Below are positions 1-64,000 of a stretch of DNA of 64,000 nt, in pieces. The position numbers and the translations under genes were made by a program. Position 1 is the first letter of the stretch. Each line of letters starts with the position of its first letter. This DNA comes from Bremia lactucae (taxonomy: Eukaryota > Oomycota > Peronosporomycetes > Peronosporales > Peronosporaceae). Location: contig NW_027152030.1 of assembly GCF_004359215.1 (NCBI RefSeq), forward strand, positions 610,333 to 674,332, read 5' to 3'. Below the pieces are notes generated by a model. It did no database searches and was not told where the DNA came from. It saw only the letters and a list, made by a program, of their open reading frames with translations.

Positions 1-1690
1 CCGTATCTGTGGACTTCGTCTTCGGATTTCCCGAAAACGACCACAAAAATAATGGAATCCTTGTTTTTGTAGACAGATTCAGCAAGATGGTGCACCTTGC
101 TGCGGTACCAGAGTCGATTACGGCTCCGGGTTGTGCCCGTGTCTTTATCGACACGGTATTCAAATTCCACGGTTTACTCCGTGAACTGGTCTCGGATAGA
201 GATCCACCGTTATCGGCGGAGTTTGGCAATCCGTATTCTGATCTCTCGGAACACGGCTGACTATGTCAACATCCGATCACCCAGAAACGGATAATCAAAC
301 AGCGTCCTCGAAGAGATACTTCGAGGTTACGTCCAATCGTATCCGAATTGGAGCGAGTTTTTACCGATGGTCGAATTCGCCATCAATAATTCGGTGCATG
401 CGTCTACAACGCATACACCGTTCTTTGTGAATGGCTTACGCCATCCTCGCATACCGACCCAATTAGAGGGATCCTCTAGTCTAAGGGGGGGGGACTCGCA
501 GGAGCAAAACCAATTCTGGCTCATGCTCAACACGCGTCGAAAATAACAACGACGCGAGTGATGTCAATGTCGAAGAAAACGACATCGAAAATGAGATTGA
601 TCTCATGGCAGTACGCACTAAGCGTACTGAAAAAGACAAAACAAATGAGTTAGCGGAAGAGTTTCTGCTAACTCGAGAATCAATTATCCGTTTCGTTCAG
701 GATTCTATTGCTAACGCAGTGGACCGACAGAAATGGAATGCAGACAAACATGGAAGAGCAAATGTTAATTCATTCAAATTAATGATCTAGTGCTACTCTC
801 TACGGTAAACTTACCTAAACGATTAGTCACTAATGTGGGTAGCATTAAACTACTACCCAAGTTCATTGGGCCTTTCCGTGTACTGCATCGAAGAGGCAAT
901 GCGTACACAATAGAATTGCGACGTAGGATGCGAACGCATCCTACGTTTTACGTTGGTCGGCTCCGGCCGTACCATCAGTACGCGGCTTCTTCCGAGGACG
1001 GATTTGACCACTCTTTACAAGAATACCCAAAAGATTATTGTGATCGCGAACCAGATTTTCATGTTGAACCTGAAGTTTCTCAGGCCGGTTTCGAAGATCC
1101 TCGAAGCTACGATGAGCTGACGACAGCTCATCGCGGACAGCATGATACTTCCGCTCGTACTCCAACAAGGAGTACGCACTCTTCGAACGGTCTTCCAACC
1201 GCTCGATATGGTGAGCCTGCACCGTCTGCTCCAACGAGCGACGCTTACCGCGCTCGTGGTCAAGTCCCTCCTCCAAATCATGGAGGAAGCGATCGAGTTT
1301 GTCGACCATCGACACTAGATCCGACACATGGGTCGGATTTAATTTTCACTCCTCCGCCACAACCATTGGTGAATTTCCAAGGCTGTCAACGTTTCCTTGT
1401 GGAACGTATACTCCGTGATGTGAAGGGGTAGCGAACAAGTTATCTTGTTCGCTGGTGCGGTTTACAACCTTCACATGACAGCAGGGAGCCTCGTTCCCAG
1501 CTGGTTGTTGACGTTGAGAGCCTCGTCCGTCAGTATGACGAGACCCATCCAATGGATCATAAGGTCTATCAGAAAACACGCGCCTCTGGCGCCTGTAAAT
1601 CGATGGCAAAACGTCAATCTCATCGCGCATCTCGATAGAGATGCGAGCCCTTCCCCTGGATCACTGGTGACCCGGCGAGGACGCCGGAGG
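1..1690 (+). mobile_element. Ty3/gypsy remnant, family B: integrase core to chromodomain
   Basis: The 3' part of a gag-pol polyprotein that enters from the left edge. The first 260 bases read as an integrase catalytic core with the first Asp in DFVFGFP and the second in LVSDRDP. The third catalytic region is damaged near 250-310 by a frameshift and stop. Bases 605-1000 encode the integrase C-terminus (KFIGPF and HPTFYVGRLRPYH). A polar linker follows, then a chromodomain-like end (QRFLVERIL, later QYDETHP near 1545) that needs a frame change at about 1431. The copy at 13.2-21.1 kb has the same order and closely similar sequence, so I put both in one family. Several stops and shifts make it inactive. 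No LTR was found at its 3' side. Confidence 0.8.
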
Positions 1691-6081: not shown

Positions 6082-6336
6082 ATTCTTGGTATGGCCTGGC
6101 TAGAACATCATGAACCGAATTAGTAATATTTATTGTGAGGAGTAGCTTCTCCAGACAAGCTATTGATAAGCCTTTCTGGCAAAAGCCACGGCTTCTTTTC
6201 AGGGGCGAGATGAGACATTTTACTGTCTTCACTCCCCTGACCGTGGATCAATTGGAAGTCTAAGACCTTAGGCGCCACGCGCAATATTCCTAGCAAAGTT
6301 TTGGAGAGTCATGGACCCACCTTTGCTAGGCAACAA
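6082..6336 (+). other. Inverted segment inside family C protease
   Basis: The minus-strand protease reads well up to RYDLI at 6337, then becomes nonsense. The expected continuation is found on the plus strand of this segment: ILGMAWLEHHEP at 6082-6117, then WINWKSKTLGATR and ESHGPTFARQQ ending at 6336. Minus-strand sense resumes below 6082 with ESVTVLDIGM. This is what a simple local inversion of about 255 bp would leave. Both breakpoints are defined by protein sense to within a few bases. Confidence 0.75.
6118..6243. repeat. 126-bp insertion with 4-bp target duplication
   Basis: It separates HEP from WINW in the inverted protease segment. ACCG is present just before it and again at its right end, which fits a 4-bp target duplication. 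It holds a hairpin (TCAGGGG...CCCCTGA with an inner AGACA/TGTCT stem). A related copy lies at 19966-20090 in the 3' region of the family B element, with a longer inner stem. Confidence 0.6.
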
Positions 6337-8266: not shown

Positions 8267-8760
8267 CTATCAGCTTAAAGACATGAACTTTCCCTAGTGA
8301 CCCTGCCAGTTTAGCAGTGGTCAATAAAACTACGTCCTATGACCGACCTCTCGGCGGTATCATAGGCGAGTTTGATGCTAAAAGCGTGAGCGAGGCTCAA
8401 CGCTTTTTGATTAAGCGATTAGCCATCACACGAAAAGTCCGTGACGAGATGGCAAGCGCACAGGACAAGCAAAAAGAATATGCTGACCGAAATGGTCTCA
8501 AAATTAACGAACGCTTTAAAGTGGGTGAAAAAGTACTATTAAGTATTGCTACCCTACCTAAAAATGCAATTTTTGTACTACCTGGAGGTACTACGAAGTT
8601 GTTGCACCGTTTCATTGGGCCCTTTAAGGTGGTAATAGAGGTTGGTGACTCAAATTATAGGCTCACCCTTCCCTCGTATATAAAGACGCGCCGTATTTTA
8701 AGTGGGTCGTCTGAAACGGTATGTAGACTCAAATGAGCCTCATACCCCCATTCGTCGAAG
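8267..8760 (+). pseudogene. Family A pol, integrase C-terminal fragment (copy a)
   Basis: The frame from 8317 to 8736 gives YDRPLGG, a helical stretch, VGEKVLLS and HRFIGPFKV, the standard C-terminal integrase region. The final FYVGRLKRY region is frameshifted near 8695. The same sequence is found on the minus strand at 22.6-23.3 kb. The 5' part of the element is missing because the family C LTR begins immediately to the left. Confidence 0.8.
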
Positions 8761-8797
8761 AAGACGATGGTGACGCCGACTGTGAGTCTAGCGGCGA

Positions 8798-9762
8798 TCA
8801 GATGAGGGAGACGGTGAATTTACTTGGTGACTGCCTATGAAAAGGAGCACCAGCTGAGGCCTCTTCGCTAGTCTCAAATGGACTAGCAGAAGTAGCGTAG
8901 TGAGAAGAAACAGGGGGTACAGTACCGCCCATGATTTCTTTCACACGCAAGCGGGCGATATTAATTCGCTGCGACCGCTGTATCATCGCATCGGAATGCG
9001 GATGAATGCGGCGCAAGAATTTCGCCTCGTATTGGTCGGGCGTTTCATTTAAACGCAACACGACCGGGTCTTCCATAATTTAATGACACCATAATAGTTT
9101 TGAGCATTTAGAAAAGCGCGTTTTTTGAGCGACGCTATTGTCCCGTTTACACGAGGCCATTCAGAGAGAGGGAGCATAAGTGATATGCCACCCGTCACAC
9201 AGCCACGTTTAATACGGCTGGCTTGTGACAGCGACTAAGCACATTCACGCGTCGTCGGCGGAGCGTTACGCTCAGAATCCTCTATGTCAGAACCATTATG
9301 GATAATGGTCTGAGCAAAAGACGGTGTGGTTTTACCCAACGGAGAAGCGGCTGCGCCTTTATGGGCAGCGCTCGCAATAACCGTCGCTGCGCTATCCAGC
9401 GCAGACGACGAGACAGCATTCGTAAGTGTTGCTGTCTCCATGTTATGAGCAATGATAGAAGTTTGGATGGGCAATAATGTGCCATCATCCTTCCTCGTGA
9501 GATCCTTGTCCGCATCATTACTTTGAGGTGACGGCAACGGTCTCGACTCATTGTAGTCGACAATGAGCGACGGATCAACATCCTCACTGATTAAGTGGGA
9601 TGAATCCTTAAGCCCCGTTAACGCGACAGCAGCAGTAGCGGTCGGCGTTTCAGCTAAGGCATTGGACGCTGCAGGGCGTGTTAACGCGGCGCGCGCGCTA
9701 AATGCAAGAGTTAGTGGGCGTCTTCGCAGACGACCCTCCAACGTTGCCCATGTAGGTGGCAC
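8798..9762 (-). pseudogene. Antisense ORF next to 3' LTR, family A copy a
   Basis: Two open pieces lie on the strand opposite to pol. Bases 9762-9235 give 175 codons; 9076-8798 continue in another frame. The start codon that is ATG in three other copies is GTG here. Recognisable landmarks are a Ser/Thr/Ala-rich N-terminus (ETPTATAA), DVDPSLIVDYNES, a Ser/Asp-rich segment, and a basic C-terminal block with FLRRIHPHS, RSQRINIARLR and KEIMGGTVP. The C-terminal block matches plus-strand protein at 34.0-34.15 kb, in the same order after the same N-terminus. No known domain was recognised. It ends tail-to-tail with pol, and the LTR is only about 130 bp upstream of its start. Confidence 0.6.
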
Positions 9763-9790
9763 CTTTGGCGCCGTGTATGAAAACAGAGGT

Positions 9791-9808
9791 CGCTAGAGTG
9801 AATCAGAG
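9791..9808 (-). promoter_or_regulatory. Initiator-like site before antisense ORF, copy a
   Basis: The minus strand reads CTGATTCACTCTAGCG about 30 bases before the ORF start. It is a weakened form of the CTCATTCACTTTTGC seen at the same place in copies c and e. Confidence 0.4.
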
Positions 9809-9894
9809 ACTTAGCGGCGCGTCAAGCAGCATAGTTCTTCCTTCCACTTTATCGAAGTTTAAAATGTAACTTCGTTCTTTAAGGGAGTGGATAG

Positions 9895-10425
9895 TGTAAC
9901 TGGCTAAAGTTGCCCTAATGTTACACAGTCCCCGTTAAATACACTTGGTGTACTCAAGGGGATGGTCAATTTCTTAAATAAAGTAATTAGACCCACCACT
10001 TGAGTGTGGTTCACATTTGTGACCAACCCTTGTGTATGTGATGCACATAGGTGCATTCACATTAGGAGGGATGTCGCCTAGCGTCATCCGTTACGCGAGA
10101 TATATAGAGATACGCTCGCAAAACATATTAGTGTAATCAATAGAGATGACAGTTCAATTTGGTAAAAATTGGAATTTATATTTAATGCGATTATATTTAA
10201 ATCGGTCTCAAACTACTTTCTACTTATCAAGTGCGCACGAGGAGTCGAATCACCGCTCCCGTGACGACACGTTTACCAGAGTACCTAGTGCGTTGGATGA
10301 GGTCGCTAAGGCGCCCACCACAATTACCTCACGGCACACGAAATTAGACGGTCAAACAGCTTCTCCGCTGCGCTAGGGTGTGTGCTTAAGTAGAGCGTGC
10401 CCCCATAAAGACTTGCCCACCTACA
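9895..10425 (+). repeat. Family A LTR (copy a, 3' LTR)
   Basis: It starts TGTAACTGGCTAAAGTTGCC and ends CCACCTACA, about 531 bp. The purine-rich tract AAGGGAGTGGATAG directly upstream fits a polypurine tract, which sets the element on the plus strand. The first 31 bases form an inverted repeat (TGTAAC...GTTACA). Related LTRs are at 21524, 33000, 40361 and 45110. Confidence 0.75.
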
Positions 10426-10429
10426 ACTT

Positions 10430-12775: not shown

Positions 12776-13214
12776 AAGGATAATACAAACAACAATGATG
12801 CTACGTAATTTAATGTTGATGTATTAATTAAATCTGTAAGCGTCAAATTTTACTTGACATTTAAAAGCTATTGAAGTAGTACACTCCGAATTATTTCTGG
12901 TTGTCAATTTCGTCAATTTGTTAATTGCGCTGGAGCATATGTTAGGTGAATACGGGGTAATTTCTTAAAGGCATTCAGGTCATATTTAAAAAGCCCTGTA
13001 AGTACATTGTAATGGTGTTTCCGTTTCATAAATATTATTTTCGGTAAGAGGAATAATAAATACGATTTCCTTTAAGAGAAAATCAATAGATTTTTTGGTC
13101 TTTTATCAAATTCGACTTAACAGTTCCAATATTACCAATTTTGGTAATATTGACGCGATAAGACAGTGATTCTTTTAATTGGTTGATTTTAGTTTGAATC
13201 AACCGATCTACACG
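12776..13214. other. AT-rich spacer between effector candidate and family B LTR
   Basis: About 440 bp of 3' flanking sequence with no gene or repeat recognised. A small inverted repeat (ATTACCAA/TTGGTAAT) is present near 13130-13150. Confidence 0.4.
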
Positions 13215-13652
13215 TGTAACGGGGTGTATCGTTACAAGAAAATTAACACTTTAAGGTTGTTAATTGTATATTATCTAAAAGGTAGAGAATATTTGGAGAA
13301 TATATCTTTACGTGGTAATTTCCTAAAAGCTTATCTATTGGTAGATATACACCATTATATCTACTTTCTCCGCGGTCCAGTCAGCGCTGGACGCACGCAA
13401 AAGAAAAAGACAGATAAGACTTCATTACATGTTTTGTATTAGTTTAAAATTAATTTAGTACTTAATAGACAGAAGCAGAAGAACTTAATTATATTAAATA
13501 CGGTTTTATCAACCTCTTTTAAGCAAGTGCTATAAAGAGAGTCTTCCTTTGCACGTACTAGGTGCGTGAACTGACGTGAGGCACCACTCGCACCGAGGCA
13601 GTGCGAAGTGGACTTTTATTGAAACAGTACAAGTCAGTAGTGCTCCGTTACA
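13215..13652 (+). repeat. Family B 5' LTR
   Basis: It runs from TGTAACGGGGTGTATCGTTACA to CTCCGTTACA, 438 bp. It matches the LTR at 20694-21146 along its length, with clear substitutions and small indels, so the insertion is old. No matching target-site duplication was found in the flanks. Confidence 0.8.
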
Positions 13653-17900: not shown

Positions 17901-19560
17901 TCTTCGAAATTTTCAAGGCCGATCACAAAAACAATGGCATCCTTGTTTTTCTTGACAGATTCACCAAGATGGTACATCTTGCTGCGGTACCAGAGTCGAT
18001 CACGGCTCCGGGCTGTGCCCGTGTCTTTATCATCACGAAATTCAAACTTTGCGGGTTACCTTGTGAACTGGTCTCGGATATATATATAAGATCCACGGTT
18101 TATGGCGGAATTTTATCAATCCGTATTCCAATCTTTCGGAACACGGCTGACTATGTTAACATCCGATCATCCAGAGACAGATGGTCAGACGGAACACGTA
18201 AATCGCGTTCTCAAAGAGATACTTCGAGGTTACGTCCAATCGTATCCGAATTGGAGCGAGTTTTTAGCGATGGTGGAATTCGCCATCAACAATTCGGTGC
18301 ATGCGTCTACAACACATACACCGTTATTCGTGAGTGGCTTACGAAGTCCACGAATACCCACTCAATTAGAGATATCCTCTATTTTAAGGGGCGGGGTGGA
18401 CTCGCACGGGCAAAAAAAATTCTGGCTCATGCTCATCACGCGTCGAAGGTACCAACGACGCGAATGATCACGATGTCGAAGCAATCGACATCGAAGATGA
18501 GAAAGATCTTATGGCAGTGCGCACAAAGCGCACTAGAACAGACAAAACAAATCAGTTAGCAGAGTCATTTCTGCTGGCTCGAGATCAGTAGTCCGTTTCG
18601 TACAGGATTCCATTGCTAACGCAGTGCACCGTCTGAAACGAAACGCAGACCATCATGGAAGAGCAAATATTGTTTCATTCAAAATTAATGACCTAGTACT
18701 ACTCTCTACGGTAAACTTACCTAAGCGTGTAGTCACTAATGCGGGTAGCAGTAAACTACTACCCAAGTTCATTGGGCCATTCCGTGTCCGCATCGCAGAG
18801 GCAATGCGTAGAAAATAGAATTGCCACGTAGGATGCGAATATAATTTAAATAATTTAATAACTTTAGGCCTACGCTTCCAACATTTTACGTTGGTTGGAT
18901 CAGCCCGTACCATCAATACGAGGTTTCTTTCGAGGACGAATCTGACCACCCTTTTCAAAAATCCCGAAAAAAATCTTGTGGTCACGAACCAGATTCTCTT
19001 GCTGAATCTGGAGATTCTCATGTCGGGTTCGAAGATCCTCGAAACTGCGATGAGCTGACGACAGCTCACCACGAAGATCGTGATACTTCCGTTCGTTCTC
19101 CAACATTGAGGACGCACTCTCCGAACGGTTTTCCAACCGTTCGATATAGTGAGCCTGCACCGTCTGCTCCAACGAGTGACTCTTGCCGCGCTCGAATTCA
19201 AGACCCCTTTCCAATACATGAAGGAAGCGATCGAGTTTGTCGATCTTCGACTCTAGGTCCGACACACAAGTCAGATCTATATTTCCAATCTCCGCCACAA
19301 CCATTGGTTAATATTAAGGTATCAACGTTTCCCTGTCAAACGTATCCAAAACCACCGTAATGCGAAGGGGCAGCGAACGAGTTATCTTGCTCGTTGGCAC
19401 GGTTATTCATCTTCACATGACAGCTGGGAGCCTCGTTCCCAGCTGATTGTTGATGTTGAGGGCCTCGTGCATCAGTATGACGAGACCCATCCGATAAATT
19501 AGAAGGTCCATCGGAAAACACGCACCCCTGGCGCCTCTAAATCGATTGCAAAACGTCAAT
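14902..19560 (+). pseudogene. Family B pol (PR-RT-RNase H-integrase-chromodomain)
   Basis: Retropepsin at 14902-15219 (DCGASNNF active site, ILGLPWL). PR-RT linker and RT start at 15283-16293. RT palm and thumb at 16263-16941 (YFDDVF intact). RNase H near 16950-17340 (YDASDFAIG), broken near 17165. Integrase zinc finger at 17582-17830, in which one Cys codon has become a stop. Integrase core at 17870-18467, where the first catalytic Asp is Glu (SMEFIF). Integrase C-terminus at 18590-18820 and a decayed chromodomain region to about 19520. The order defines a chromovirus-like Ty3/gypsy. Many stops exclude activity. Confidence 0.85.
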
Positions 19561-19965
19561 CGCGTCACGCATCTCGATAGAGATGCGAGCCCTTCCCAGG
19601 GCGAAGAAAGGAAAGAGACGTCCCTTTTACTCGCTTTGTGTTGTCAACACAACACGGACAGGGATCACCCCACGTGAGGCATGGAAGCCCAGCCTCACGT
19701 GAGAACCGATGCAATTGATACCTTGCACCGGTCGGATTTCGTTTCTCAAACTTAACGCGAATCGCGTTAAGTCTTTGAAGCCAGGCTTCGCGTCCATGTC
19801 TCTGAATTTGCGAATGAACGCGCTCCAGGCTTGCATAAGCGAGACTTTATCTCGCTTGTTGTTGCCACTATATCATCAATGCTTGAAAAAGACATCGAGA
19901 TAAAAATCGTCCTCAGCGCGAAAGTTCTTTCACGCTGGGATCAAGGCCATGTAGCTTTGTCGCAA

Positions 19966-20090
19966 TAAATAAGTTATATTTATTGTGAGGAGGAGTATCT
20001 CCAGACAAGCTATTAATTAGCTGCTCGAGCTGAAGCCACGGCTTCTTCTCAGGGGCAAGACGAGACACTTTAGTGTCTACGATCCCCTGA
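19966..20090 (-). repeat. Second copy of the 126-bp hairpin-bearing sequence
   Basis: It is similar to the insertion at 6118-6243. The hairpin keeps TCAGGGG/CCCCTGA and has a longer inner stem (AGACACT/AGTGTCT). On the minus strand both copies keep a similar reading frame (LAPEKKPW, LINSLSG, PHNKY). Confidence 0.55.
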
Positions 20091-20154
20091 GTAGTACCAC
20101 TTAAGCAGGGGCCCACAAGAACTTTAATAACGACGGCTTACGCCATCGTCATCA

Positions 20155-20565
20155 TCACGCGCAGAAATGTGCGGGTGACGGCACGGGAGAAGGTGCTGGC
20201 GATGAGTAATCATACTTATCGTCGGAATCGAGGATGCTGTAGCGAATGCTACCAGCACGTCTACTCGAATAAGCCCCCTCATTCGAGGGCTCATAGTCAG
20301 CCGCCTGACGATGATTAGGCGAATGTTCTGTTCTCCCCGAGTCGGACGATATGGCCGACTCGCATTCGTAGTCGACCTCCAAAGAGGGGTCGCATTCACG
20401 TGGTGTATCACCACGTGCACCCGCAACATTTAGAGTTGCGGGAGAAGATGACACTACAGCAGACGGAGCGTCTGCCCCATGATACACTAATGCGTCGCCC
20501 GCGGCTGCATGAACCGCAGTCGAAGGCGCCGCACTATTCGCATACCACATGGACTTGTTAATCAT
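20155..20565 (-). CDS. Antisense ORF next to family B 3' LTR
   Basis: It has 136 codons with an ATG at 20565, on the strand opposite to family B pol and about 130 bp from the 3' LTR. The N-terminal part is Ala/Ser-rich. A central CDPSLEVDYECES resembles the DVDPSLIVDYNES landmark of the family A antisense ORF. A Ser/Tyr/Asp-rich tail ends PSPAHFCA. Further minus-strand open pieces lie at 20116-19913 and 19836-19627 and may belong to the same decayed gene. The plus strand here has many stops in all frames, so it is not simply a shadow of an intact sense frame. Function unknown. Confidence 0.45.
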   Translation of the reverse strand: MINKSMWYANSAAPSTAVHAAAGDALVYHGADAPSAVVSSSPATLNVAGARGDTPRECDPSLEVDYECESAISSDSGRTEHSPNHRQAADYEPSNEGAYSSRRAGSIRYSILDSDDKYDYSSPAPSPVPSPAHFCA

Positions 20566-20680: not shown

Positions 20681-20693
20681 TGGTGTAACGGGG
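20681..20693 (+). promoter_or_regulatory. Polypurine tract, family B
   Basis: AAGAGAGTGGTGG lies directly before the 3' LTR start TGTAAC. It fixes the element's orientation as plus. Confidence 0.6.
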
Positions 20694-21146
20694 AGTATCG
20701 TTACATGGTATTAACACTTAAAGGTTGGTAACTAATATGTTATCTAAAAGGTAGATAATATTGGAGAATATTACTTTACATGCTAGTATTTAAAAAAAAT
20801 TTCCATTGGTAGATATAGACCATTAAATCTACTTCCTCCGCGGTCGTCAGCGCTGGACGTGCGCAAAGAGAAAGACAGAAAAGGCTTTTATTGCATGTTT
20901 TGTATTAGTTTATAATTAAGTTAGTATTAAGTAGATAGACAAGAAGAACTTAATTATATTCATACATTTTTCATTTTACCCTCTTTAAAGCATGTGTTTT
21001 AAAGGAAAGACTTCCTCTGCACGTTCTAGCGAACGTGAAGTGACGTGAGGCACCACTCGCACTGAGGCAGTGCGAAGTGGACTTGTACTGAAGTAGTGCG
21101 AAGTGGACTTGTACTGAAGCAGTACAAGTCGGCAGTGCCCGATACA
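20694..21146 (+). repeat. Family B 3' LTR
   Basis: It runs from TGTAACGGGGAGTATCGTTACA to CCGATACA, 453 bp. It is slightly longer than the 5' LTR because of a local duplication of a unit containing GTGCGAAGTGGACTTGTACTGAAG near 21065-21125. Confidence 0.75.
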
Positions 21147-21523
21147 GTTTAGGTGCTGTTAACCCAAAATATTATCGAGTATAGCAGCATTGCGGACAAT
21201 GGCAAAAAGCAGAAATGCACCTGCGATAAGGCATGTTGCGTTGTAAAAGGCGTACACAGTGCGGCTTTGGCATGCTTTCGCCAGCAAGTCCCTCGATTAC
21301 TAGCTTGGCGCCGATGTATTATAAGTTCAATAAATTGGCCCGGAGTCTCTGGCTATTCAAGGTTTAAGTCGTCAGTGCGGATACTATACATCGCGCGAAG
21401 TGCTAAACGCAGTGCGGGATGGTCGCGCAAAAGTAAAATATTAGTCAAGTAAAGGGTGAGTAGAAACCCATTGAAGGGGACTTGCGAGAATAGTTGCCTT
21501 AGCACTCCGTTCCAGAGCTACAT
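21147..21523. other. Spacer between family B and family A elements
   Basis: A frame open from 21153 to 21452 shows no recognised domain. No repeat boundary or gene was identified. Confidence 0.35.
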
Positions 21524-22035
21524 TGTAGGCGGGCATGTCTTAATTCGACCACGCTCTACTTAAGCACCCCTTCGAGCACAGCGAGGAAGTGGTTTGACCG
21601 TCTATTTGCGCGTGCAGTGAGCTAGTTAATGTGGGCGCGTTAGCGACCTCACCCAACGCACTAAATACTCTATTATACGTGTCACTACTTGAGCGGTAAT
21701 CCGGCTCCTCGTACGCGCTTTCCAATTAGAAAGTTTTCAGACTGTTTTGTATTAAATCGATCAAATATAACTACCTATTTTTAATTATCATAAAACGTCA
21801 TCTCTGAAGATAACACTAATATGTATTGCGAGCGTATCTTCTGGATACCTCGCGTAACGGATGATGCTAGGCGTCATCCATCCAAATGTGAATGCACCTA
21901 TGTGCATCACATGGGTCACAATGTGAACCACACTCAAGTAGTGGGTCTTATTACTTTCCTTAAGCAATTGACCACCCCGTTAAGTACACAAAGTGTACTT
22001 AAAGGGGACTGTGTAACATTAGGGCAACTTTATAG
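21524..22035 (-). repeat. Family A LTR, copy b (3' LTR)
   Basis: On the minus strand it runs from a decayed TGTAAC-type start near 22035 to CCTACA at 21524. It matches the LTRs at 9895 and 45110 along most of its length. Confidence 0.65.
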
Positions 22036-22110: not shown

Positions 22111-22360
22111 AGGCCACCTGAAAGAGGCAACATTTTTGGGTCGTCTGCGAAGACACCCACTCAACCACGCGCGAAGCGCACGCGCCGCGTTAACACGCCG
22201 GCAGCGTCTTATGCCTCAGTCGAAACACCGATAGCTACTGCTGCTGCCGGGTTAGCTGGGCTTAAGGATCTATCCCGCTATAACAGTTAGGACGTCGACC
22301 CGTCACCCTTTGTCGACTACAATGAGTCGACACCGTTGCCGTCACCTCGTAGTTGTGATG
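22111..22360 (+). pseudogene. Antisense ORF, family A copy b (N-terminal part)
   Basis: The start codon has become AGG. The frame then gives a basic segment (SAKTPTQPRAKRTRRV), VETPIATAAA, one stop, and DVDPSPFVDYNESTPLPSP. It is cut at about 22365 by another LTR fragment. It lies opposite to the minus-strand pol that ends at 22636. Confidence 0.55.
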
Positions 22361-22364
22361 CGAG

Positions 22365-22560
22365 CGTATCTTTCTAGATACCTCGCGTAACGGATGACGC
22401 TAGCCGTCATCACGGATGACGCTGGGCGTCATCCCTCCTAATGTGAATGCACCCATGTGCATCACATACACAAGGGTTGGTCACAAATGTGCACCACACC
22501 CGAGTGCTGGGTCTAATTACTATTATTTAATAATTGACCATCCCCTGAAGTATTAGTGTG
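22365..22560 (-). repeat. Family A LTR fragment
   Basis: This segment matches the U3-like part of the LTR at 9895-10130, reversed, including TGTGCATCACATACACAAGG. It sits between the antisense ORF fragment and the end of pol. Confidence 0.6.
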
Positions 22561-22635
22561 AGCGGCGCGCGATAGGAGTGGCGATTTCGCCCACCTAATC
22601 GTAGCTGCCAATCGTCGTCCGTTCAGTCGCAGAAA

Positions 22636-25600
22636 TTAAGCGCTGCTGAACGACGTATTGTGGATGAATCGAGGGTCACGTCTTGTGACTGACCTCGGAT
22701 CTTGCTGATGATCGAGCGAAGGCTCGTCAGGGTTATGAACTTCTGAAGTATCGCTTGGACCTTCTGGAAAAGGTAATGCTGAGGGATCCGCGTTACTCGC
22801 GTGATGTCCCACGCTCCCCGAGTCCTTTTCGTGGTGGGAGGAGTCGATCGGCTGAATATTTTTCTCCTTCTCCATCCCTCTCACCCGAACGACGCTCGAC
22901 TCACAGTCGGCGTCACCATTGGTCTTCTTAGACGGATGGGAATATTTGACCTCATTTAAGTCTACATACGACCCACGGAAAATACGGGGTGCGTTTTCAT
23001 ATACGGAAAACTGTGAGCCTAAATTTTGCTCTCCGACATTTTCTGCTACCGTAAAGGGCCCAATGAAACGCGGCAACAATTTCGTAGTACCTCCAGGCTC
23101 TTGCTTGTCATATGCGCTTGCCATTGCGTCACGGACTTTTCGCGTGATGGCTATTCGCTCATCCACAAAGCGTTGAGCCTCGCCTTTAGCATCGCATCAA
23201 ACTCGCCTATGACACCGCCGAGAGGTCGGTCATAGGACGTAATTTGATTGATCACTGCTAAACTGACAGGGTCACTCGGGCAACTTTTTGTGATTGAGAT
23301 GATATCCTCGCGGGTCATCGTCATATTGAAGAAACTATATCCCTCTTTCGCACCGAACATAGTAATGGGCCCTCCCCCACTAAGACTCGGGCTGCACACA
23401 AACGAGACTGGCGTCCGAGGATGGCGCAGTCCGTAAATATAAAACGGTGTCTCACCCCTACTGGCGTGGACCTGGTATTTTATAGGGAACTCCACCAAGG
23501 TCAATTGTTTGCTCCATTCTTTGGGAGTTGCTTTCGCGCGTAAGACATCCACCACGATTCGATTAATACGCTCTGTTTGGCTATCGGTCTGGGAATGATC
23601 TGCGGTCAACATATGGTGCTTGCTACTTAGTAGCTCAAGCCCCGTCTGACCCTTTTGGTCGGGCGGCATGCCAAAGATGAAGTCCAGACTTACTTACTTC
23701 CAACAGGACTTAAAATCGGTAGCGGCTCCAGTGGCACACTGCTGGACGATGTAGGCTTAATGTGCTGACACTGTTCGCAAAAGCGAATTTAGTTGGCCAC
23801 CCATCTACATAGTTATTGCCACTAATATTCCTCTGACACTCGCAAGAATGTCTTCTCACGGCCCAGAGGCCTACTAGATGGCACATCATGGAGATAGATA
23901 AGAATTTCAGCTTGAGATCTCTGCCATGAAACACATAGATTATCAAGGGATCACAAGGTGACAGCTGATACCATAACAGGCCATCGCTGTAGCTAAAGCG
24001 GTTTAGCTTAGCTATTAGATGCGAGGGAAGGGAAACCTTTAGTCCACCGAAGTGATCCAACAGCAGGCAACAATGTTCGTCCTGACTCTAGCTCTCTTGT
24101 ATATCAGAGGCTAACGAGCTCGTCACGTGGTATGCCTTCATGGTTGCCAACGTTGACGGCTGTAATTGTGCTTTCGTACTAGACACACTTTCCTGGTGTC
24201 TAACCTCGAAGTCTGGTCTGCGCGATAAAGCGTCAGCCAAGACATTCGACTTACCCGGCTTGTATTCAACTTTGAAATTAAATTCAGAGAAGAATGTGAG
24301 CCATCTTGCCATTCTAGGCGAGTGGTGCGGTGAGTTTATTGCGGTCCGCAGTGATGCGTGATCCGTATAAACCACAAATGGTTCGATGCCCAGTAGGTGC
24401 ACACGAAACTTGACAAGAGCATACTTTATTGAAAGTAGCTCTTTGTCATACACAGGGTAATTCAGTTCCACGGCTTTTAATAGCCGGGACTGATAAGAGA
24501 TGACATGGTTAACGCCGTCGTCATTCTTCTGCATGAGCGCGCTGCCGATTGCAAAAAAAAAAAAAAATTACTTGCACCGTAAACGACGCTAAAGGGCTTA
24601 TCCGCGTCTGGCAATGCCAAGACCGTTGCCTCTATCAGAGATGCTTCACTGATGTGAAAACATCTTCTTTATTTTTCAATGAATCCCATTCTGCGCCCTT
24701 TTAACAAAATCAGATAATGGCTTAGCTTTCTCAGCATAATTCTTGCTATATTTATGCAAGTAATTAGTTAGCCCAAGGAATTGGCGCAAATCCTTCACAT
24801 GCCGTGGGATTGGCCTATCCCTTACATATTTTACCTTGTCTGGGTCTGCTCGTACACCATGTGTACCTACGATGAAGTCCAGTGCAGGTATCTTAGGGAC
24901 CCCCATGACGCATTTTTGCAAGTTGACGTACAATTGGGCGTCCTTCAAAGTCTGCAACACAGCGTCTAAATGACGCTTGTGCGACTCTATTGCGCTCAGC
25001 CCGTCCTCGGCCCTACTATGCACGAATTCATCGTCAAAGTAAAGGGGCGCGTTGGCACGGTGCTGAGGCATCACGTGAGCTTCCACTCGGTTGAATGCCG
25101 CTAGTGAGTTTCAACCCTTGAGGCATCACAAGCCACTTTCAAAGCATACCGCTTGGAGTGCTTTTACAGCTGGTTTGGCTACATTGGACTCTCTCACGAG
25201 TACCTGATAGTATTCATCTTTTACATCCGACGCGGAAAATAGAGTTAACTTTCCTATGGAATTCAACAAAGCAACTTACCGCGGAATTGGCATTTGCGCC
25301 AGTATAGTCGCCGTGTTCAGCTTATTGTAAGCATGAACCACGCGCCATCCTCCTGTGGCTTTACGCACACAAAAGGTCGGGCTGCAGTGAGGCGATTTGC
25401 TCTCACGCACATGTCTCGCCTAAACTCGCTTGTCAATGAACTCATCGATATAATCGACTTGTTCTTTTGGTAACGGCCATTGCCTGGTCACACAATGCTT
25501 TGTACCAAGTTCGAGGTCTATTTCGTGCCCGATGCCCCTATCTGCTGGAAGGTAACCAAGGCACTTCTTCTGGGAACACATCGCGATGTTTTCACAGAAC

Positions 25601-26402
25601 CTCAAAGTACGGACTGTCTCTCATAGCGTCCCAGCCTTTAGCAGCATACAATTTCTTTTTTGTACATTTCTAGGACGCTCTAGTGAATTGTGGGCGACGA
25701 GCAACAGTTTACCAAGTTCTCTTTTAAAACTGGTGTGACTATTCCGTTGATCTTCCCTTCCGCAAGGAACAGATTCCACGACATCTTAAGGAGGTAAGCA
25801 ATCTCCTCGGCAGATTTTGAAGACTTCCGGAGCACCTCAACTGAGGACGCCTCCGCAATTTCGTCTTTGACGACCTCGACACCTCACTTGAAGGCCTGTC
25901 CTCTAGAATAGAAGCCGATTCAAAGGTCACTCATTTAGACGCGCCTTTGATCATCCTTATCTGTCGTGTACTCTTCTTCGGGTCACCGCGACCTTTGAAT
26001 GGGAAGCGGGTGCCGTTGCTCTCCCGACTAACGCATCCCTTCCAACCACACCAGGCCATAAACACTGTACCGGTTCATGCGACGCTTGACTCCCTGTCAG
26101 CTCACCGTCTACTGCCGCAGACTCTCGATTCTGTGCAGGACTATGGGACACATGACTACTTGTCATTGCTCTTTTCACTACCCAGTCTCCACGAGCTGGG
26201 TAGGAATTGGTGACGTTTGACATCCCGTCAACGCACCCTCAACTGTGTTCGACACGACATCAGTTGCATGCGCCTCTCGCAGGAGCACATCCTTTCCGGT
26301 GTCCTGCGTAGAGTTCGCAACTGTGCGTGTACGCCAGTCTATCCATGGTTGGTACTTTGCCAACCATGGCATGCCTAGGATGAGGTCATACGGACTCTCC
26401 AT
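22636..26402 (-). mobile_element. Family A gypsy pol, array copy 1
   Basis: Right to left: PR end and PR-RT linker (26402-25739), RT in pieces (25605-24676, YFDDEF), RNase H (24534-24088; KELLSIKYAL, TDHASL), integrase zinc finger region (24060-23710), and integrase core with C-terminus (23669-22636). The integrase core lacks the part between its first Asp region (MPPDQKGQ) and the second (LTADHSQTD), which is an internal deletion. A 15-A run interrupts RNase H at 24553-24567. The copy is defective. Confidence 0.8.
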
Positions 26403-26403
26403 N
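26403..26403. other. Single undetermined base at an element junction
   Basis: To the left the sequence reads as protease (minus strand). To the right it continues as the end of RNase H of another copy. The N marks the exact join, so it is probably an assembly or gap-closing point rather than biology. Confidence 0.6.
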
Positions 26404-32999: not shown

Positions 33000-33240
33000 G
33001 CGTTGCTCCACAGCTAACAGCCAGTGGAGAATCGTGTGCGCTGCATTTTTATCGAACTTGTGCGAGTATATTAAGGAAGCGCTTTAATCGTTTTCTCATA
33101 CGCGCAGCGAGGTAGTTATTCGGCGCCTCAGACAAGTGACGTCACGGAAGCGGTTGTACGTCTTCTCGTGCGCACCGCGTTCTAGGATGTATAAATTGAT
33201 ATATATTTACGACGTGCTGCTACAAATCTCTCATTCACTT
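33000..33240 (-). repeat. Family A LTR remnant shared by two array copies
   Basis: The segment with GTGACGTCACGGAAGCGGTTG and GCAGCGAGGTAGTT matches part of the LTR at 40361-40856. Gag of copy 3 lies on its left and the 3' region of copy 4 on its right. It therefore serves as 5' LTR of one and 3' LTR of the other. Outer ends are decayed. Confidence 0.5.
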
Positions 33241-33292: not shown

Positions 33293-34151
33293 ATGCCAAC
33301 CAAAAGAGGCAAAGCTGATGGGTTGTCTGCAAAGACCCAACACAAAGTGTACCCGCCACGACAATATGCTGCCGTTACCTAGTGTCACAATAGCAACGTT
33401 AACAACTTATGCTTCTCACGCTGTCAACTCGACGCAATGATCTTTCATACTTACTACGTGAGAATGTAAATTCGTCGTTCATTGTCGACCACAATGAGTC
33501 GATACCGCTGCCACCATTGCAAAGTGGTGATGAAGCCAGCGAACTAATGGGAAGGGTTATGGCGCTATAACGCTCATCGACAATTTGCCCATTGCTCTCA
33601 ACATGGAGACGCCTAACGTTGCGATGGCATATTTGCTTAACATCAACAAGGCAATTGCCGGTCGTCTGCGTTAACGAGCGCAGCGATTATTCATGAGACC
33701 ACGGCCATTGAGGGTGCAATTGCAATTTAGTTGGGTGAAACCCCACCATCTGTCACTCAAACCATCTACAATGGAAAGTCTGATGCAGAAGAGCCTGAGC
33801 ACAATGCCCAACCGACTGTATAGGATCGTGACCAGTCGGTGTCACATATTTGCTTTATGGATCTAGTGCGCCGCTCCTTCAGCGACCTTAAAAACGCTCA
33901 TAATTTTTATTACGTTAGCAACTCGCAGAGACTTAATAATAATTACTTGGCCGTATTTTCCCGATTTCGGTTGTGTTGAAATAGCGGACCAGTAAGAAGC
34001 AGACTTCCTGCGCCGCTATCAGCCACATTTCGTTCTGGTGAAAGAACGGTCGCAACAAATCAATTTATATGTTTCGCGTGTGAGAGAACTGATGGGCAGT
34101 ACTGTACCCTCTGCTACTTTTCATCACGCTGCTCTTGCCATTCCATTATGA
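33293..34151 (+). pseudogene. Antisense ORF, family A copy e
   Basis: It keeps the ATG (MPTKRGKADGLSAKT) and then decays. DHNESIPLPP at about 33490 matches the central landmark. The C-terminal block at 33960-34151 is open and reads EADFLRRYQPH, RSQQINLYVSRVRELMG and TVPS before a TGA. This is collinear with copy a at 9762-8798 and similar in protein although the DNA is divergent. It lies opposite to the pol that ends near 34610, tail-to-tail with it. Confidence 0.6.
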
Positions 34152-35858
34152 GTAGCGGAAAAGCTCCAACTGTTGCATTTTCAAAGGCAAACACCAGTCC
34201 CGGCACAGGGCGTCGAACAGTTTCCAAGAGCGATAACCCTTCGTGTATCCTCTCCTGCCGAAGTCGTTTTTCGTGTATGCGATGAGTGGTGCAAAAAAGG
34301 ACCTTCACTGTGCTGTCGCCAATCACGCTTCGAGACCGGGGTCCCAAGCCTAAAACGACCCCATTTAAAAAAATCAAACCTTAGCTATCGTTGCTGTCCA
34401 CAATTTATCTTGTTATTCGTATTCTTATTTTCTTTAAAAGAATTTGTTCGTAATATTTGTATAATTATCTAGTTTAATTAAGGTTTTCTCGAGTTACAGA
34501 GAATCTGAAGTTAATGCTTCACGGAGTGGTGGTCTAGCACATTCCAGCAAGTAGACCTTAGTCCTCAGCCCGATCAATAAAAGTCGATTACGCTAACCTA
34601 CTCGTGTCAGCCTATCCACTACCGTTCAGGTGCAGAGCGCTGCCGCACGACGGATCGGGATTCGAGAAAGTTAACTTTCGCGACTGACTTTGGATCTCCA
34701 CAATAATTACCTGAAGGATGCTACGATAGAAGCTGATGTTGAGACTCGCGTCATGCGCGCAGTCCTCCTCGCTCTTTGAATTCCTCTTAACAATGTGGGA
34801 GGAGTTTATTGGCTGGAAGCTATTCCAATTCTCCGTAAACACCATCTGAGCGACGCTCGATTCCCGGTCGACGTCATCATCGGTATCAGGGGATATGGGA
34901 TTTCTTGTGTATCATGATATCGTTTCAGACGACCCACGTATAAGAGGGAAGGCGTCTTCATACACGGCGGGAGTTGCCCATGACTTTGGCCTCCAACCTC
35001 CTCCACTACCGTAATTGTCCAATGAAACGTGGCAGTATTATGTCAGTACTACCAGGTAATACAGAACTGCCTTTTAAGGTAGAGTAGCAGTTCTTAATGT
35101 AACTCACCAAAAGGGCTCATTAAATCTGCGACCATGTTTGTCCGCGTTCAGATTTTGCTTATTTTGTGCGCTTGTCATTGCGTCACGATTTTTTCATGGG
35201 ATCGCTAATTCACAAAGCGTTGAGCCTCGCTAACATTCTAGCATTAAACTCCGCAATGACGCCACCGAGAGGTCAGTCTTAGGATGTAGTTACCAATAAT
35301 GAAACGTCTTATTATCGTCTACGGGCAGAGGTATTTCTTGCCGCATTCCGCACTGACTATAGGTGTCGTGACCGCTGCTACACTGGCAGGGCCACCAGAG
35401 CAAAATTTCTGCCGTAGTCTCTTGCCCCTTGTGGGTCATCGTCATTTTGGCGAAATTGTGTCCTTTATTCTTTAACTTACTAAGCTTAGTGAGGTGCCCC
35501 CAATTAGACTCGGGCTGCGTACAAACGTGACTGGCGTCCGAGGATAGCGCCGTTCGTTAATATAGAACGGTATCTCATGCGTACTGGCGCGGACACTGTT
35601 ATTAGTAGTGAACCTCACGAACGGTAGCTGTTTTCTCCATTTCTTAGTAGTCGCTACTGTGCGCAACACATTTGCCACGACGTTCTGTTTGGCTATCGGT
35701 CTAGGATGTTCGGCTGTTGACAGTTGGAGCTTGCTACCTAGCAGCTCAATAACAAGACGTCAAAATCCCAAAGTAAAACGCGGATCTTGGTCTGAAACAA
35801 GGACGCGAGCATCTCGTTTAGTCGATTCACGTTAAACAGGAACAAGAAAGCTGCGTCC

Positions 35859-40360: not shown

Positions 40361-40856
40361 TGTCGGTGAGCGCTTCTAAAGCAACCTCGCACTACAAAGC
40401 ACACACCTTCGGGCACAGCAAGAAAGCGGTGTGACCGTCTTCTCTCACTTGCAGCGAGGTAGTTGGTGGGCGCCTACTTGTACACTTATACAAGTGACGT
40501 CACGGAAGCGGTTGCCCGTCTTCTCTTGCGCACACCGTGTACTTATTCGTACACTGTGCGCAAGATTATATTTTATAAATTAAAACCAAAACCTTTTATC
40601 CGATGATTAGATGCCAATTCTGTTTATGTGCATCTCTCCATGGCGACGTATTTTTTTCTAAATACGTCAGCCCGCAGATGACTTCAGACGTCACCTCCTT
40701 TGCTGTGAATGCCTCTGTGTGCATCACATACACAAGGTCGGGTCACTTTGTTAACCTCGTTCGAGTGATAGGTCTACTAAACTTCACACGAATTAATTGA
40801 CCTGTCTGTTAAGTGTACCTATTGGACGTGTAATAAAAGGCACTTAGCCCGTTATA
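40361..40856 (-). repeat. Family A 5' LTR of array copy 4
   Basis: On the minus strand it runs from TATAACGGGCTAAGTGCC at 40856 to CACCGACA at 40361, 496 bp. It contains GTGCATCACATACACAAGG and GTGACGTCACGG, shared with the other family A LTRs. Confidence 0.65.
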
Positions 40857-44640: not shown

Positions 44641-44720
44641 TCGCAGTCGTTGGACGACGCGTAGAGTTTGACGAGGCTAGGTCGGTCTCCACCTTGGAAG
44701 ACGCAGTTGCTGGGCCCTCA

Positions 44721-44978
44721 TTAGATCGCTGTCCTCATCACTACTATGAGGTGATGACAGCGGTGTCGACTCATTGTAGTCAACAATGAGCGACGGATCA
44801 ACATCCTCACTGCGCAGGTGGGTTGGATCTTAAGTCCCGTTAACGCAGCAGCAGTAGCTGTCGGCGTTTCGACTGAGGCATTGGACACTGCCGGCGTATC
44901 AACGCAGTGTGTGCGCTTGGCGCGAAGTTTAATGTCATCGCAGACGAACCACCAACTTTTCCTTTTTGTAGGTGGCAT
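44721..44978 (-). pseudogene. Antisense ORF, family A copy c (N-terminal part)
   Basis: The ATG at 44978 is intact (MPPTKRKSW). The frame then gives VSNASVETPTATAAALTGLK. A shift removes the DPSLIVDYNES landmark, which is still visible in another frame around 44790. It lies opposite to the gag on the plus strand and about 130 bp from the LTR. Confidence 0.55.
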
Positions 44979-45095: not shown

Positions 45096-45109
45096 AAAAG
45101 GGGGGATGG
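45096..45109 (+). promoter_or_regulatory. Polypurine tract, family A
   Basis: AAAAGGGGGGATGG directly precedes the LTR start TGTAAC. The reversed form is found at 63489-63505. It sets the sense strand of the element as opposite to the adjacent antisense ORF. Confidence 0.65.
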
Positions 45110-45632
45110 TGTAACAGGCTAAAGTTGCCCTCATGTTACACAGTCCCCGTTAAGTACACTTTTAAACTTTGGGGAAGGTCGATTACTAAAAAAAATTGTA
45201 ATTGTATCTTACTATTTGGGTGTGGTTCACATTGTGACCCACCCTTGTAAATGTGATGTTCCTGAGGGCATTCTTATTAGCGGGGATGACGGCTAATGTC
45301 ATCCGTTACGCGAAGTATCTCGAATGATATGCTCGCAATAGATATTCGCGTCTATCTGCAGGGATGGCATTTTAGGTTGGTTAAAAATAGGTATTTATAT
45401 AATACGAATAAATATAAATTAGTCTGAAAACTACTTCCTGCTTGATACGTGCGCACGAGGAGCCAGATTACCGCTCCCGTGACGACACGTATATCGAAGT
45501 ACTAATTGTGTTGGGTGAGTCGCTAAGGCGCCCACCACAACAAAATCACTGCACGTGAGAGAAGTCAGTCAAACCCCTACTTCGCTGCGCTAGGCAGAGC
45601 GTGACCGCAATAAGACGTGCCCGTTTCCAGTC
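45110..45632 (+). repeat. Family A LTR, copy c (3' LTR)
   Basis: It starts TGTAACAGGCTAAAGTTGCC and matches 9895-10425 along its length. The 3' end near 45632 is decayed and was placed by alignment to copy a. Confidence 0.65.
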
Positions 45633-63300: not shown

Positions 63301-63488
63301 TGTAACGGGCTAAGGTTGCCTTAATGCTACACAAATGTGCATCACATACACAAGGGCTCGTCACAAATGTTAACCACATCCGAGTGCTGGGTCTAATTAC
63401 TTTAATTTAGTAATGGACCATCCCCTTAAGTACAACAAGTGTACTTAACGTGGACTGTGTAACGTTAGGGAAACTTTAGCCCGTTACA
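63301..63488 (-). repeat. Family A LTR fragment with inverted ends
   Basis: The 31 bases at 63301-63331 (TGTAACGGGCTAAGG...) and at 63458-63488 are inverted copies of each other. The part between matches the U3-like region of the family A LTR in minus orientation. A reversed polypurine tract (CCATCCCCCCCTTAAAG) follows at 63489-63505, so the element extends to the right on the minus strand. Confidence 0.6.
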
Positions 63489-63575
63489 CCATCCCCCCCT
63501 TAAAGAACAAATTTACATGTTTAAATTCGTCAAAGAGGAGCGAGGAACTGCGAGCAGCTTTACGCGCCGCTAGTT

Positions 63576-63621: not shown

Positions 63622-64000
63622 ATGCCACCTAAAGGGGCCACGTTGGTGGGTTGTCTGCGAAGACGCCCACTCAACGTCGCACTAAGCGCACAAGCCGCGT
63701 TAGCTCCCCGGCCGCGTCCAATGCCTTAGTCGAAACGCCGACAGCTACTGCTGCTGTCGCGTTAACAGGGCTAAAGGACCCATCCCACTTTAACAGTGAG
63801 GATGCTGATCCGTCGCTCATTGTCGACTACAATGAGTCGACACCGTTGCCGTCACCTCATAGTAGTGATGCGGACAACGAGCTCATGAGGAAGGATGATG
63901 GCGCATTATTGCCCATCCAAACTTCTCTCATGGCTCACAACATGGAGACAGCAACATTTACGAATGCTGTCTCGTCGTCTGCGCTGGATAGCGCAGCGAC
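63622..64000 (+). pseudogene. Antisense ORF, family A copy d (partial, runs off the end)
   Basis: The ATG is intact (MPPKGATLV). After a frameshift the landmarks follow in order: TPTATAAVALTGLKD, DADPSLIVDYNESTPLPSP, LMRKDDGALLPIQTS and NAVSSSALDSA. From about 63700 on it is open and matches copy a (9700-9400) closely. The element's own gag-pol must lie to the right on the minus strand, outside the window. Confidence 0.55.

What the first reader, a model, noticed from the sequence alone, without database searches (positions are those of the whole stretch)
8798..10425. Antisense gene between pol and the 3' LTR in a Ty3/gypsy family, seen in five copies
In family A copies at 9, 22, 33, 45 and 63.6 kb an ORF lies on the strand opposite to gag-pol, starting about 100-130 bp from the 3' LTR and running tail-to-tail toward pol where pol is present. 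Copies a and e are divergent in DNA but still align as protein at both ends (DPSL-VDYNES; FLRR..PH...RSQ.IN...TVP), in the same order. ATG is kept in three of five copies. The element's own direction is fixed by the polypurine tracts, by LTR ends and by pol. Antisense ORFs next to the 3' LTR are known in some plant Ty3/gypsy groups (Ogre, Grande); I know of none described for oomycetes. It could counteract host silencing or control copy number, which is speculation.
Basis: partly seen in the sequence, partly recalled or inferred. Interest (0 to 1): 0.8.

Follow-up and report, generated by a model that had tools for sequence, protein, structure and literature searches.

The report
Antisense gene in oomycete retrotransposons
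Two families of jumping genes in a water-mould genome carry an extra protein gene written backwards between their enzyme gene and their end repeat, partly overlapping the enzyme gene; in one family evolution clearly preserves its protein, but its job is unknown.

Summary
All five family-A copies in the window carry collinear remnants of one antisense (AS) gene. The copy at 8.8-10.4 kb is itself broken. Elsewhere in the genome the frame is intact (493 codons, ATG to TAA), starting about 120 nt inside the 3' LTR. Related proteins of about 480 aa occur in Peronospora effusa and P. farinosa. Two things go beyond the finding. (1) The gene does not just face pol: it overlaps pol's end by ~550 nt, its coiled coil lying opposite the linker before pol's chromodomain (chromodomain opposite in 43 of 43 loci that reach it). 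In the linker stretch shared variants fit the AS frame, not pol's. (2) A second gypsy family in the window has a gene in the same place, orientation and reading phase, open over 231 codons opposite an open pol tail (0 of 2000 synonymous shuffles do so). Sequence homology of the two AS proteins is not shown. Most likely it is a nuclear coiled-coil accessory protein, comparable in layout to Grande, Retand and Boty antisense genes. No expression data.

The parts
8764..9762 (-). AS gene, family A copy a (broken: GTG at start, frame breaks, codons ~320-473 missing)
8287..8736 (+). pol 3' part of copy a with SH3_Tf2-1 domain (PF24626, 6.4e-9)
8824..8868 (+). chromodomain remnant of pol opposite the AS gene, copy a (15 codons, E 1e-4)
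9880..10426 (+). 3' LTR of copy a (approximate limits; partial duplication to 10610)
22114..22925 (+). AS gene, copy b (codons ~85-366 missing, interrupted by LTR-like DNA)
21523..22032 (-). 3' LTR of copy b
33293..34883 (+). AS gene, copy c (scattered segments 39-83% identical, ATG kept)
33073..33175 (-). 3' LTR remnant of copy c
40372..40776 (-). 5' LTR remnant of copy c: an LTR piece on either side of AS and pol
44716..44978 (-). AS gene 5' part, copy d (ATG kept)
45104..45594 (+). 3' LTR of copy d
63622..64000 (+). AS gene 5' part, copy e (ATG kept; continues beyond the window)
63335..63502 (-). 3' LTR part of copy e
769..1635 (+). family B copy 1: pol tail with SH3 and chromodomain (one in-frame break)
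944..1660 (-). family B copy 1: AS coiled-coil part, opposite pol linker and chromodomain (one in-frame stop)
6126..6239 (-). family B copy 1: displaced AS fragment (92% identical to codons 24-61 of L110's AS frame)
18537..19577 (+). family B copy 2: pol tail with chromodomain (frame breaks)
18885..20098 (-). family B copy 2: AS gene middle and coiled-coil part (frame breaks)
20158..20565 (-). family B copy 2: AS N-terminal open frame with DPSLEVDY motif, ATG 119 nt from the LTR
20684..21092 (+). family B LTR (starts TGTAACGGGG after a purine-rich tract; end not determined)

Best explanation
It is a protein-coding accessory gene of chromodomain-bearing Ty3/gypsy elements, written antisense to gag-pol. 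It begins ~120 nt inside the 3' LTR, runs toward pol and ends inside pol's C-terminal coding region. SHOWN by computation: a conserved frame with a conserved ATG; constraint at the protein level (family A); a physical overlap in which pol linker and AS coiled coil are read from opposite strands; the same layout in a second family. INFERRED: it is transcribed from an antisense promoter in or next to the 3' LTR. Its product (basic, NLS-like N-terminus; long disordered stretch; small helical region; long coiled coil; R/S-rich or basic tail; no membrane helix) self-associates in the nucleus and binds nucleic acid or the element's own complex, and tunes expression, nuclear entry or integration of the element. 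Because the elements themselves keep it, I expect it to help them on balance, not only to restrain them.
For: Intact 493-codon ORF, ATG to TAA, with no sense frame above 77 codons opposite its non-overlapping part. ATG in 19 of 20 aligned loci (read by eye) and in 32 of the 34 of 48 copies whose match includes codon 1 (such matches favour ATG). Variants shared by >=4 copies: N=82, S=55, dN/dS 0.49, Fisher p=1e-4 against singletons (1.03); four other frames 1.05-1.23; frame S2, which shares its third positions with the AS frame, 0.65 (p=0.014). It holds after thinning to 31 of 47 copies (0.56, p=0.01). 36 relatives in the protein database, one of them the genome's own and 8 with a species name (7 P. 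effusa, 1 P. farinosa); neutral drift keeps the frame open in 14 of 10,000 simulations over five divergences, 13 of them at 79% identity. Two unnamed relatives begin with a translated LTR edge, and the P. farinosa one ends in the reverse frame of pol: same layout elsewhere. Chromodomain on the opposite strand in 43 of 43 reaching loci. Synonymous shuffles of pol never leave the AS frame open: 0 of 2000 in each family. Long helix with pLDDT mostly >90 in both families' models. Basic start, R/S/P tail, no membrane helix in six proteins.
Against: No transcript, promoter or protein evidence. Nuclear location, self-association and nucleic-acid binding are read from composition and low-confidence models (mean pLDDT 57 and 51). 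No Pfam, PDB or viral-structure match gives a function. Most fetched copies are broken. The 46 loci were picked by AS matches, so how many elements lack the gene is unknown. Opposite the chromodomain the AS frame shows no excess of synonymous change (0.91, p=0.65), and a first test on fewer copies saw no constraint in the overlap (1.03). In family B, pairwise differences show no codon-position bias, so selection there rests on openness alone. Profile comparison does not join the two families' AS proteins (probability 1.3%).
Confidence: 0.6

Rival explanations
1. The AS protein is a self-limiting factor (copy-number control): made when many copies are present, it interferes with Gag, pol or sense transcription, much as p22 of Ty1 does, though from the antisense strand.
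For: A coiled coil could trap element proteins; convergent transcription through pol would also damp the sense RNA. Ty1 copy-number control is described in PMC8458377 and PMC7055915 (seen only in the search listing).
Against: A pure restraint should be lost by elements that escape it; here it is found in two abundant families and, for family A, in relatives from other species. No Gag domain was found in it.
Confidence: 0.2
2. The antisense RNA, not a protein, is what matters (dsRNA or transcriptional interference); the open frame is incidental.
For: Antisense transcripts of retroelements with no coding role are known (micropia, TART, IAP: PMC7264820, read).
Against: Third-position excess and dN/dS 0.49 in the AS frame, conserved ATG, full-length relatives at 45-74% identity to P0002, and the double-open overlap are all protein-level signals.
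Confidence: 0.07
3. An accidental mirror ORF created by codon usage of pol on the other strand.
For: Part of the frame lies opposite pol, and some pol codes leave long antisense frames by chance.
Against: About 308 of 493 codons lie beyond pol's stop with no sense gene opposite (longest sense frame 77 codons); the overlap frame has 0 stops against a mean of 6.2 (A) and 8.1 (B) in synonymous shuffles, 0 of 2000 each without a stop.
Confidence: 0.02
4. A captured host or foreign gene carried as a passenger.
For: Gene capture by LTR elements is known in plants (PMC7264820).
Against: At least 150 scored places in this genome, and the same place in the element in other species; none of the 8 named database relatives is annotated as a host gene of known function. 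Capture may still be the ultimate origin.
Confidence: 0.08

Closest known systems
Plant Ty3/gypsy antisense aORF-3R genes (Grande gene23, RIRE2, Retand)
   Same: Antisense to gag-pol, between pol and 3' LTR, kept in most copies, function unknown, nuclear location for Grande (PMC7264820, two of three parts read; PMC11963269, passages).
   Different: Nearly all Retand clusters encode TRP28 (PF04195), absent here. The pol-3'LTR region in Retand is 2.9-6.6 kb; here the gene also overlaps pol's own end. The host elements here end pol in a chromodomain, whereas Retand is a non-chromovirus lineage.
brtn, antisense gene of Boty/BcGypsy1 in Botrytis
   Same: Antisense additional gene in a non-plant LTR retrotransposon (cited in PMC7264820 and PMC8365987; the original Zhao 2011 paper was not read).
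   Different: Fungal host; sequence not compared here.
Chronos Ty3/gypsy elements of oomycetes
   Same: Oomycete Ty3/gypsy with a chromodomain at the end of pol (PMC5348765, two of five parts read).
   Different: Chronos has a second, archaeal-type RNase H; only the ordinary gypsy RNase H was found in the pieces scanned here. The main text of that paper does not contain the word antisense.
HBZ and other retroviral antisense genes
   Same: Antisense gene of an LTR element; nuclear regulator (HBZ as told in PMC11963269 passages; antisense promoter inside the HTLV 3' LTR as told in PMC7264820; its leucine zipper is recalled).
   Different: No bZIP match here; different hosts and no sequence relation found.

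Membership tests
Plant-type aORF-3R antisense genes | ORF antisense to gag-pol between pol and 3' LTR | tested here: met
   it also runs into pol
Plant-type aORF-3R antisense genes | Conserved as a protein | tested here: met
   dN/dS 0.49 in shared variants; relatives in other species
Plant-type aORF-3R antisense genes | Present in most copies of the family | tested here: inconclusive
   Five of five family-A copies in the window, but the genome loci were chosen by AS matches, so copies without the gene were not sampled
Retand antisense genes | TRP28 domain (PF04195) | tested here: not met
   Pfam scan of three long AS frames at E<=10: 0 families; not among the four weak matches of family B at E<=1
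Tat/Retand lineage | Dual RNase H and non-chromovirus RT clade | tested here: inconclusive
   Only RT_RNaseH seen in the pieces scanned; no RT tree built; the elements carry a chromodomain
Chronos | Chromodomain at the C-terminus of pol | tested here: met
   PF00385 1.1e-9, 1.5e-9, 3.7e-14 in family B
Chronos | Additional archaeal-type RNase H | tested here: inconclusive
   Not found in the RNase H pieces scanned, but copies are broken and partly withheld
HBZ-like antisense genes | bZIP domain | tested here: not met
   no PDB relative
HBZ-like antisense genes | Antisense transcription from the 3' LTR | not testable with these tools
   no RNA data available
brtn of Boty | Sequence similarity to brtn | not tested
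   brtn sequence not at hand; original paper not read

The most novel reading that the evidence does not exclude
Antisense accessory genes arose, or were kept from an old ancestor, as a standing feature of chromodomain-bearing oomycete Ty3/gypsy elements, in parallel with plant Tat elements. In the overlap the antisense gene has become the dominant coding frame: pol's SH3-chromodomain linker is free to change while its antisense coiled coil is held, so the linker is in effect the shadow of another gene.
Probability: 0.35. Interest if true: 0.8.

Novelty: new variant of a known kind. Interest (0 to 1): 0.62.

Why it matters
Antisense genes at the 3' end of LTR elements have been described in plants, one fungus and some retroviruses, with unsettled functions in the first two. 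Finding one under selection in an oomycete, with a like-placed gene in a second family and relatives of the first in other species, makes it look like a recurrent solution rather than a plant curiosity. The convergent overlap with pol gives a clear test of which strand's protein matters. Such elements are very abundant in this genome, so an element-encoded regulator bears on how they expand. Gene annotation may mis-file such ORFs as host genes, as the 'unnamed protein product' entries of P. effusa suggest.

Tried and rejected
Chance ORF: rejected. Mis-assigned orientation (AS as the real gag): not supported; a CCHC zinc-knuckle stretch lies ~5 kb upstream of the integrase on the sense strand of one locus, with withheld letters between (L082), and three AS frames have no zinc-knuckle match. 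Membrane or env-like protein: no segment reaches a mean hydropathy of 1.6 in six proteins (max 1.34). Function by domain, PDB, structure and viral-structure libraries: nothing. Viral contigs: no relative. Direct sequence homology of the two families' AS proteins: not shown; the shared DPSLxVDY motif near residue 60 and the ~120 nt spacing were noticed after the fact (naive chance 9e-7 for the motif), and part of any similarity in the overlap could come from the homologous pol on the other strand. A first selection test with threshold >=3 and 44 copies gave 0.67 in codons 1-295 (S2 frame 0.73) and no constraint in the overlap, codons 303-425 (AS 1.03, pol frame 0.94). The S2 frame also drops in the later test (0.65; 0.34 at >=6; 0.37 opposite the linker), as expected because it shares third positions with the AS frame, but it is neither pol's frame nor open in the AS-only part. 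A pol dN/dS yardstick was not made: too few pol copies could be fetched. The genome's species is not identified; the nearest PRP6 protein is Phytophthora infestans at 93%.

Full report
SETTING. The window is C118:610333-674332 of an unnamed 116 Mb, 220-contig genome. A PRP6 splicing protein in the window is closest to Phytophthora infestans (93%) and other Peronosporaceae, so the host is an oomycete of that family; the species was not identified. The window is packed with Ty3/gypsy remains.

OBSERVATION. The finding's family A has five copies in the window. With an intact antisense (AS) protein from elsewhere in the genome as query, tblastn finds collinear AS segments in all five, on the strand opposite to pol or the LTR. 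ATG stands at codon 1 in copies c, d and e; copy a has GTG and copy b AGG. The start lies about 120 nt inside the LTR edge, which is marked by a purine tract followed by TG. Copy c has LTR remnants on both sides of its AS and pol remains (33.1 and 40.4-40.8 kb). The copy at the given coordinates is a wreck: more than one frame, and codons ~320-473 are gone. It also sits inside a long stretch repeated at 100% identity across the genome; of those exact copies only the window's own entered the selection test.

INTACT COPIES. One search scored 150 of 3658 candidate AS places in the genome. From such tables I fetched 46 loci (L061-L080, L084-L109), chosen for score, few stops or coverage. One (L104) has an unbroken frame of 493 codons from ATG to TAA; others are open for part or most of the length. 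ATG stands at codon 1 in 19 of 20 loci in the alignment (counted by eye). Of 48 copies mapped (46 loci and window copies a and e), 34 have a match that includes codon 1, and 32 of those have ATG; a local match tends to stop short when the first residue differs, so this second figure flatters the ATG.

SELECTION. I sorted variants among 47 copies (one near-duplicate dropped) into singletons, which mostly arose after insertion, and variants shared by at least four copies, which should mostly have arisen in active elements. In the part of the AS frame that does not overlap pol (codons 1-305), singletons look neutral (N=623, S=198, dN/dS 1.03), while shared ones do not (N=82, S=55, 0.49; Fisher p=1e-4). 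Four other frames give 1.05-1.23; the sense frame S2, which shares its third positions with the AS frame, gives 0.65 (p=0.014), but no sense frame is open beyond 77 codons there. AS results at thresholds 2 to 6 are 0.73, 0.60, 0.49, 0.54 and 0.34; with 31 of 47 copies after thinning, 0.56 (p=0.01). An earlier run on 44 copies gave 0.67 at threshold 3. No pol yardstick was made.

RELATIVES. A first protein search gave 11 relatives and a profile search 36, one of the latter without an outside source. Eight carry species names: seven Peronospora effusa and one P. farinosa, all 'unnamed protein product'. Full-length ones are about 480 aa and 45-74% identical to P0002. In neutral simulations the frame stayed open in 13, 0, 1, 0 and 0 of 2000 runs at mean protein identities of 79, 70, 61, 53 and 46%, so intact relatives at 45-74% point to selection. 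P0001 and P0011 (unnamed sources) begin with a stretch that is the translated LTR edge. The tail of the P. farinosa protein matches the reverse frame of pol's end in this genome (63% over 60 aa, E 3e-18). The layout therefore exists in another species.

OVERLAP WITH POL. The sense strand opposite the C-terminal ~180 codons of the AS gene encodes pol's tail: linker and chromodomain (PF00385, 1.1e-9 and 1.5e-9). In L107 both frames are open over ~550 nt. Chromodomain sequence stands on the opposite strand in 43 of 43 loci whose AS match reaches that place (3 of 46 do not reach it), and on the same strand in none. Sense second positions face AS third positions, so silent changes in one frame alter the other (phase worked out from the coordinates). 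In the whole overlap shared variants give 0.62 for the AS frame (p=0.018), 0.58 for S2 and 0.91 for pol's frame. Opposite the linker they fit the AS frame (N=18, S=16, 0.42, p=0.002; S2 0.37) and not pol's (1.27); opposite the chromodomain neither is clearly favoured (AS 0.91, pol 0.68). The earlier, smaller run saw no constraint in the overlap (AS 1.03), so this part is the weaker one. Shuffling synonymous codons of pol leaves on average 6.2 stops in the AS frame, and 0 of 2000 shuffles have none, as the real sequence has.

A SECOND FAMILY. The window holds a different gypsy family B (1-1655 and 17883-19597, 82% identical), also ending pol with SH3 and chromodomain. A fetched copy (L110) has an AS frame open for 427 codons opposite an unbroken pol tail (Chromo 3.7e-14, SH3 9.5e-13), with 231 codons open on both strands and the same reading phase as in family A. 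No synonymous shuffle reaches this (0 of 2000; mean 8.1 stops in that frame). In window copy 2 an N-terminal piece starts with ATG 119 nt from the LTR and carries DPSLEVDY, where family A has DPSLIVDY at about the same residue. Genome searches scored 150 places for each piece; in the N-terminal table about 83 of 150 rows have no stop by my count. I looked up five N-terminal and coiled-coil pairs, one of them the window's own; they lie 1.25-1.46 kb apart in the same order and strand. Direct homology of the A and B proteins is not shown (hhalign probability 1.3%, BLASTP E 0.67). Pairwise differences in B show no codon-position bias. Relatives of B in other species were not sought.

WHAT THE PROTEIN LOOKS LIKE. 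AlphaFold models are weak overall (mean pLDDT 57 for A, 51 for B, the latter from three sequences), but each has a confident long helix near the C-terminus (residues 366-435 in P0007; 297-405 in L110), read opposite pol's linker, followed by an R/S/P-rich tail (A) or a PRKKPR tail (B). The first 30 residues of six family-A proteins have 7-9 K/R. No Pfam, PDB or structural match was found; the family B model was not searched.

HOW IT MOST LIKELY WORKS. A promoter in or beside the 3' LTR drives an antisense mRNA; the protein enters the nucleus by its basic start, dimerises through the coiled coil, and acts on the element's RNA, DNA or integration complex. Only coding status, layout and constraint are shown; the rest is inference from composition and from the plant and retroviral parallels. 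Coding gene in family A: about 0.95. The nuclear accessory mechanism as a whole: about 0.6. A restraint on copy number is the main rival (0.2).

LITERATURE. [quoted passage not shown] Retand elements nearly always carry an antisense TRP28 ORF (PMC11963269, passages). Oomycete Chronos elements have a chromodomain and a second RNase H; the paper's main text does not use the word antisense (PMC5348765, parts 1 and 2 of 5 and a word search). Boty's antisense gene brtn is cited in PMC8365987 (passages). Going by titles and starts of abstracts, the lists of seven paper searches (five of them cut at 12-20 papers) hold no report of an antisense gene in oomycete LTR elements; subscription papers and preprints are not held, so this is weak evidence of novelty.

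Noticed in passing
window ~968 to beyond 13000: A stretch is 100% identical in DNA at dozens of places on many contigs (40 of 40 rows shown in each of four 1.2 kb probes between 5000 and 13000; 59 AS hits including the window's at 99%), although it contains dead transposon remains. Family-B protein hits of identical score suggest that it reaches down to ~968 (spacing checked at one locus). From 13.0 kb on the 39 other copies shown drop to 95-99%. Either a very recent burst of a large element or an assembly artefact.
   Followed up: partly
window 1-21100: Family B copy 1 seems split by insertions: its pol tail lies at 1-1655, an AS fragment at 6126-6239 and an LTR-like piece at 13214-13623, with family A copy a between the last two.
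   Followed up: partly
window 47009-50092 + and 51073-54111 +: Tandem pair of ~1000-aa proteins with a PH domain and a glycosyltransferase 2/cellulose-synthase-like domain, 71% identical in DNA; perhaps an oomycete cellulose-synthase pair (the identification is recalled).
   Followed up: no
window 56884-58863 +: Open frame with RasGAP and START domains.
   Followed up: no
window 15283-16293 +: 336-aa open frame with no Pfam match, not far beyond the identical stretch.
   Followed up: no
window 23962-32119: Three pol segments 87-97% alike in a row, suggesting repeated insertion or duplication of one gypsy family.
   Followed up: no
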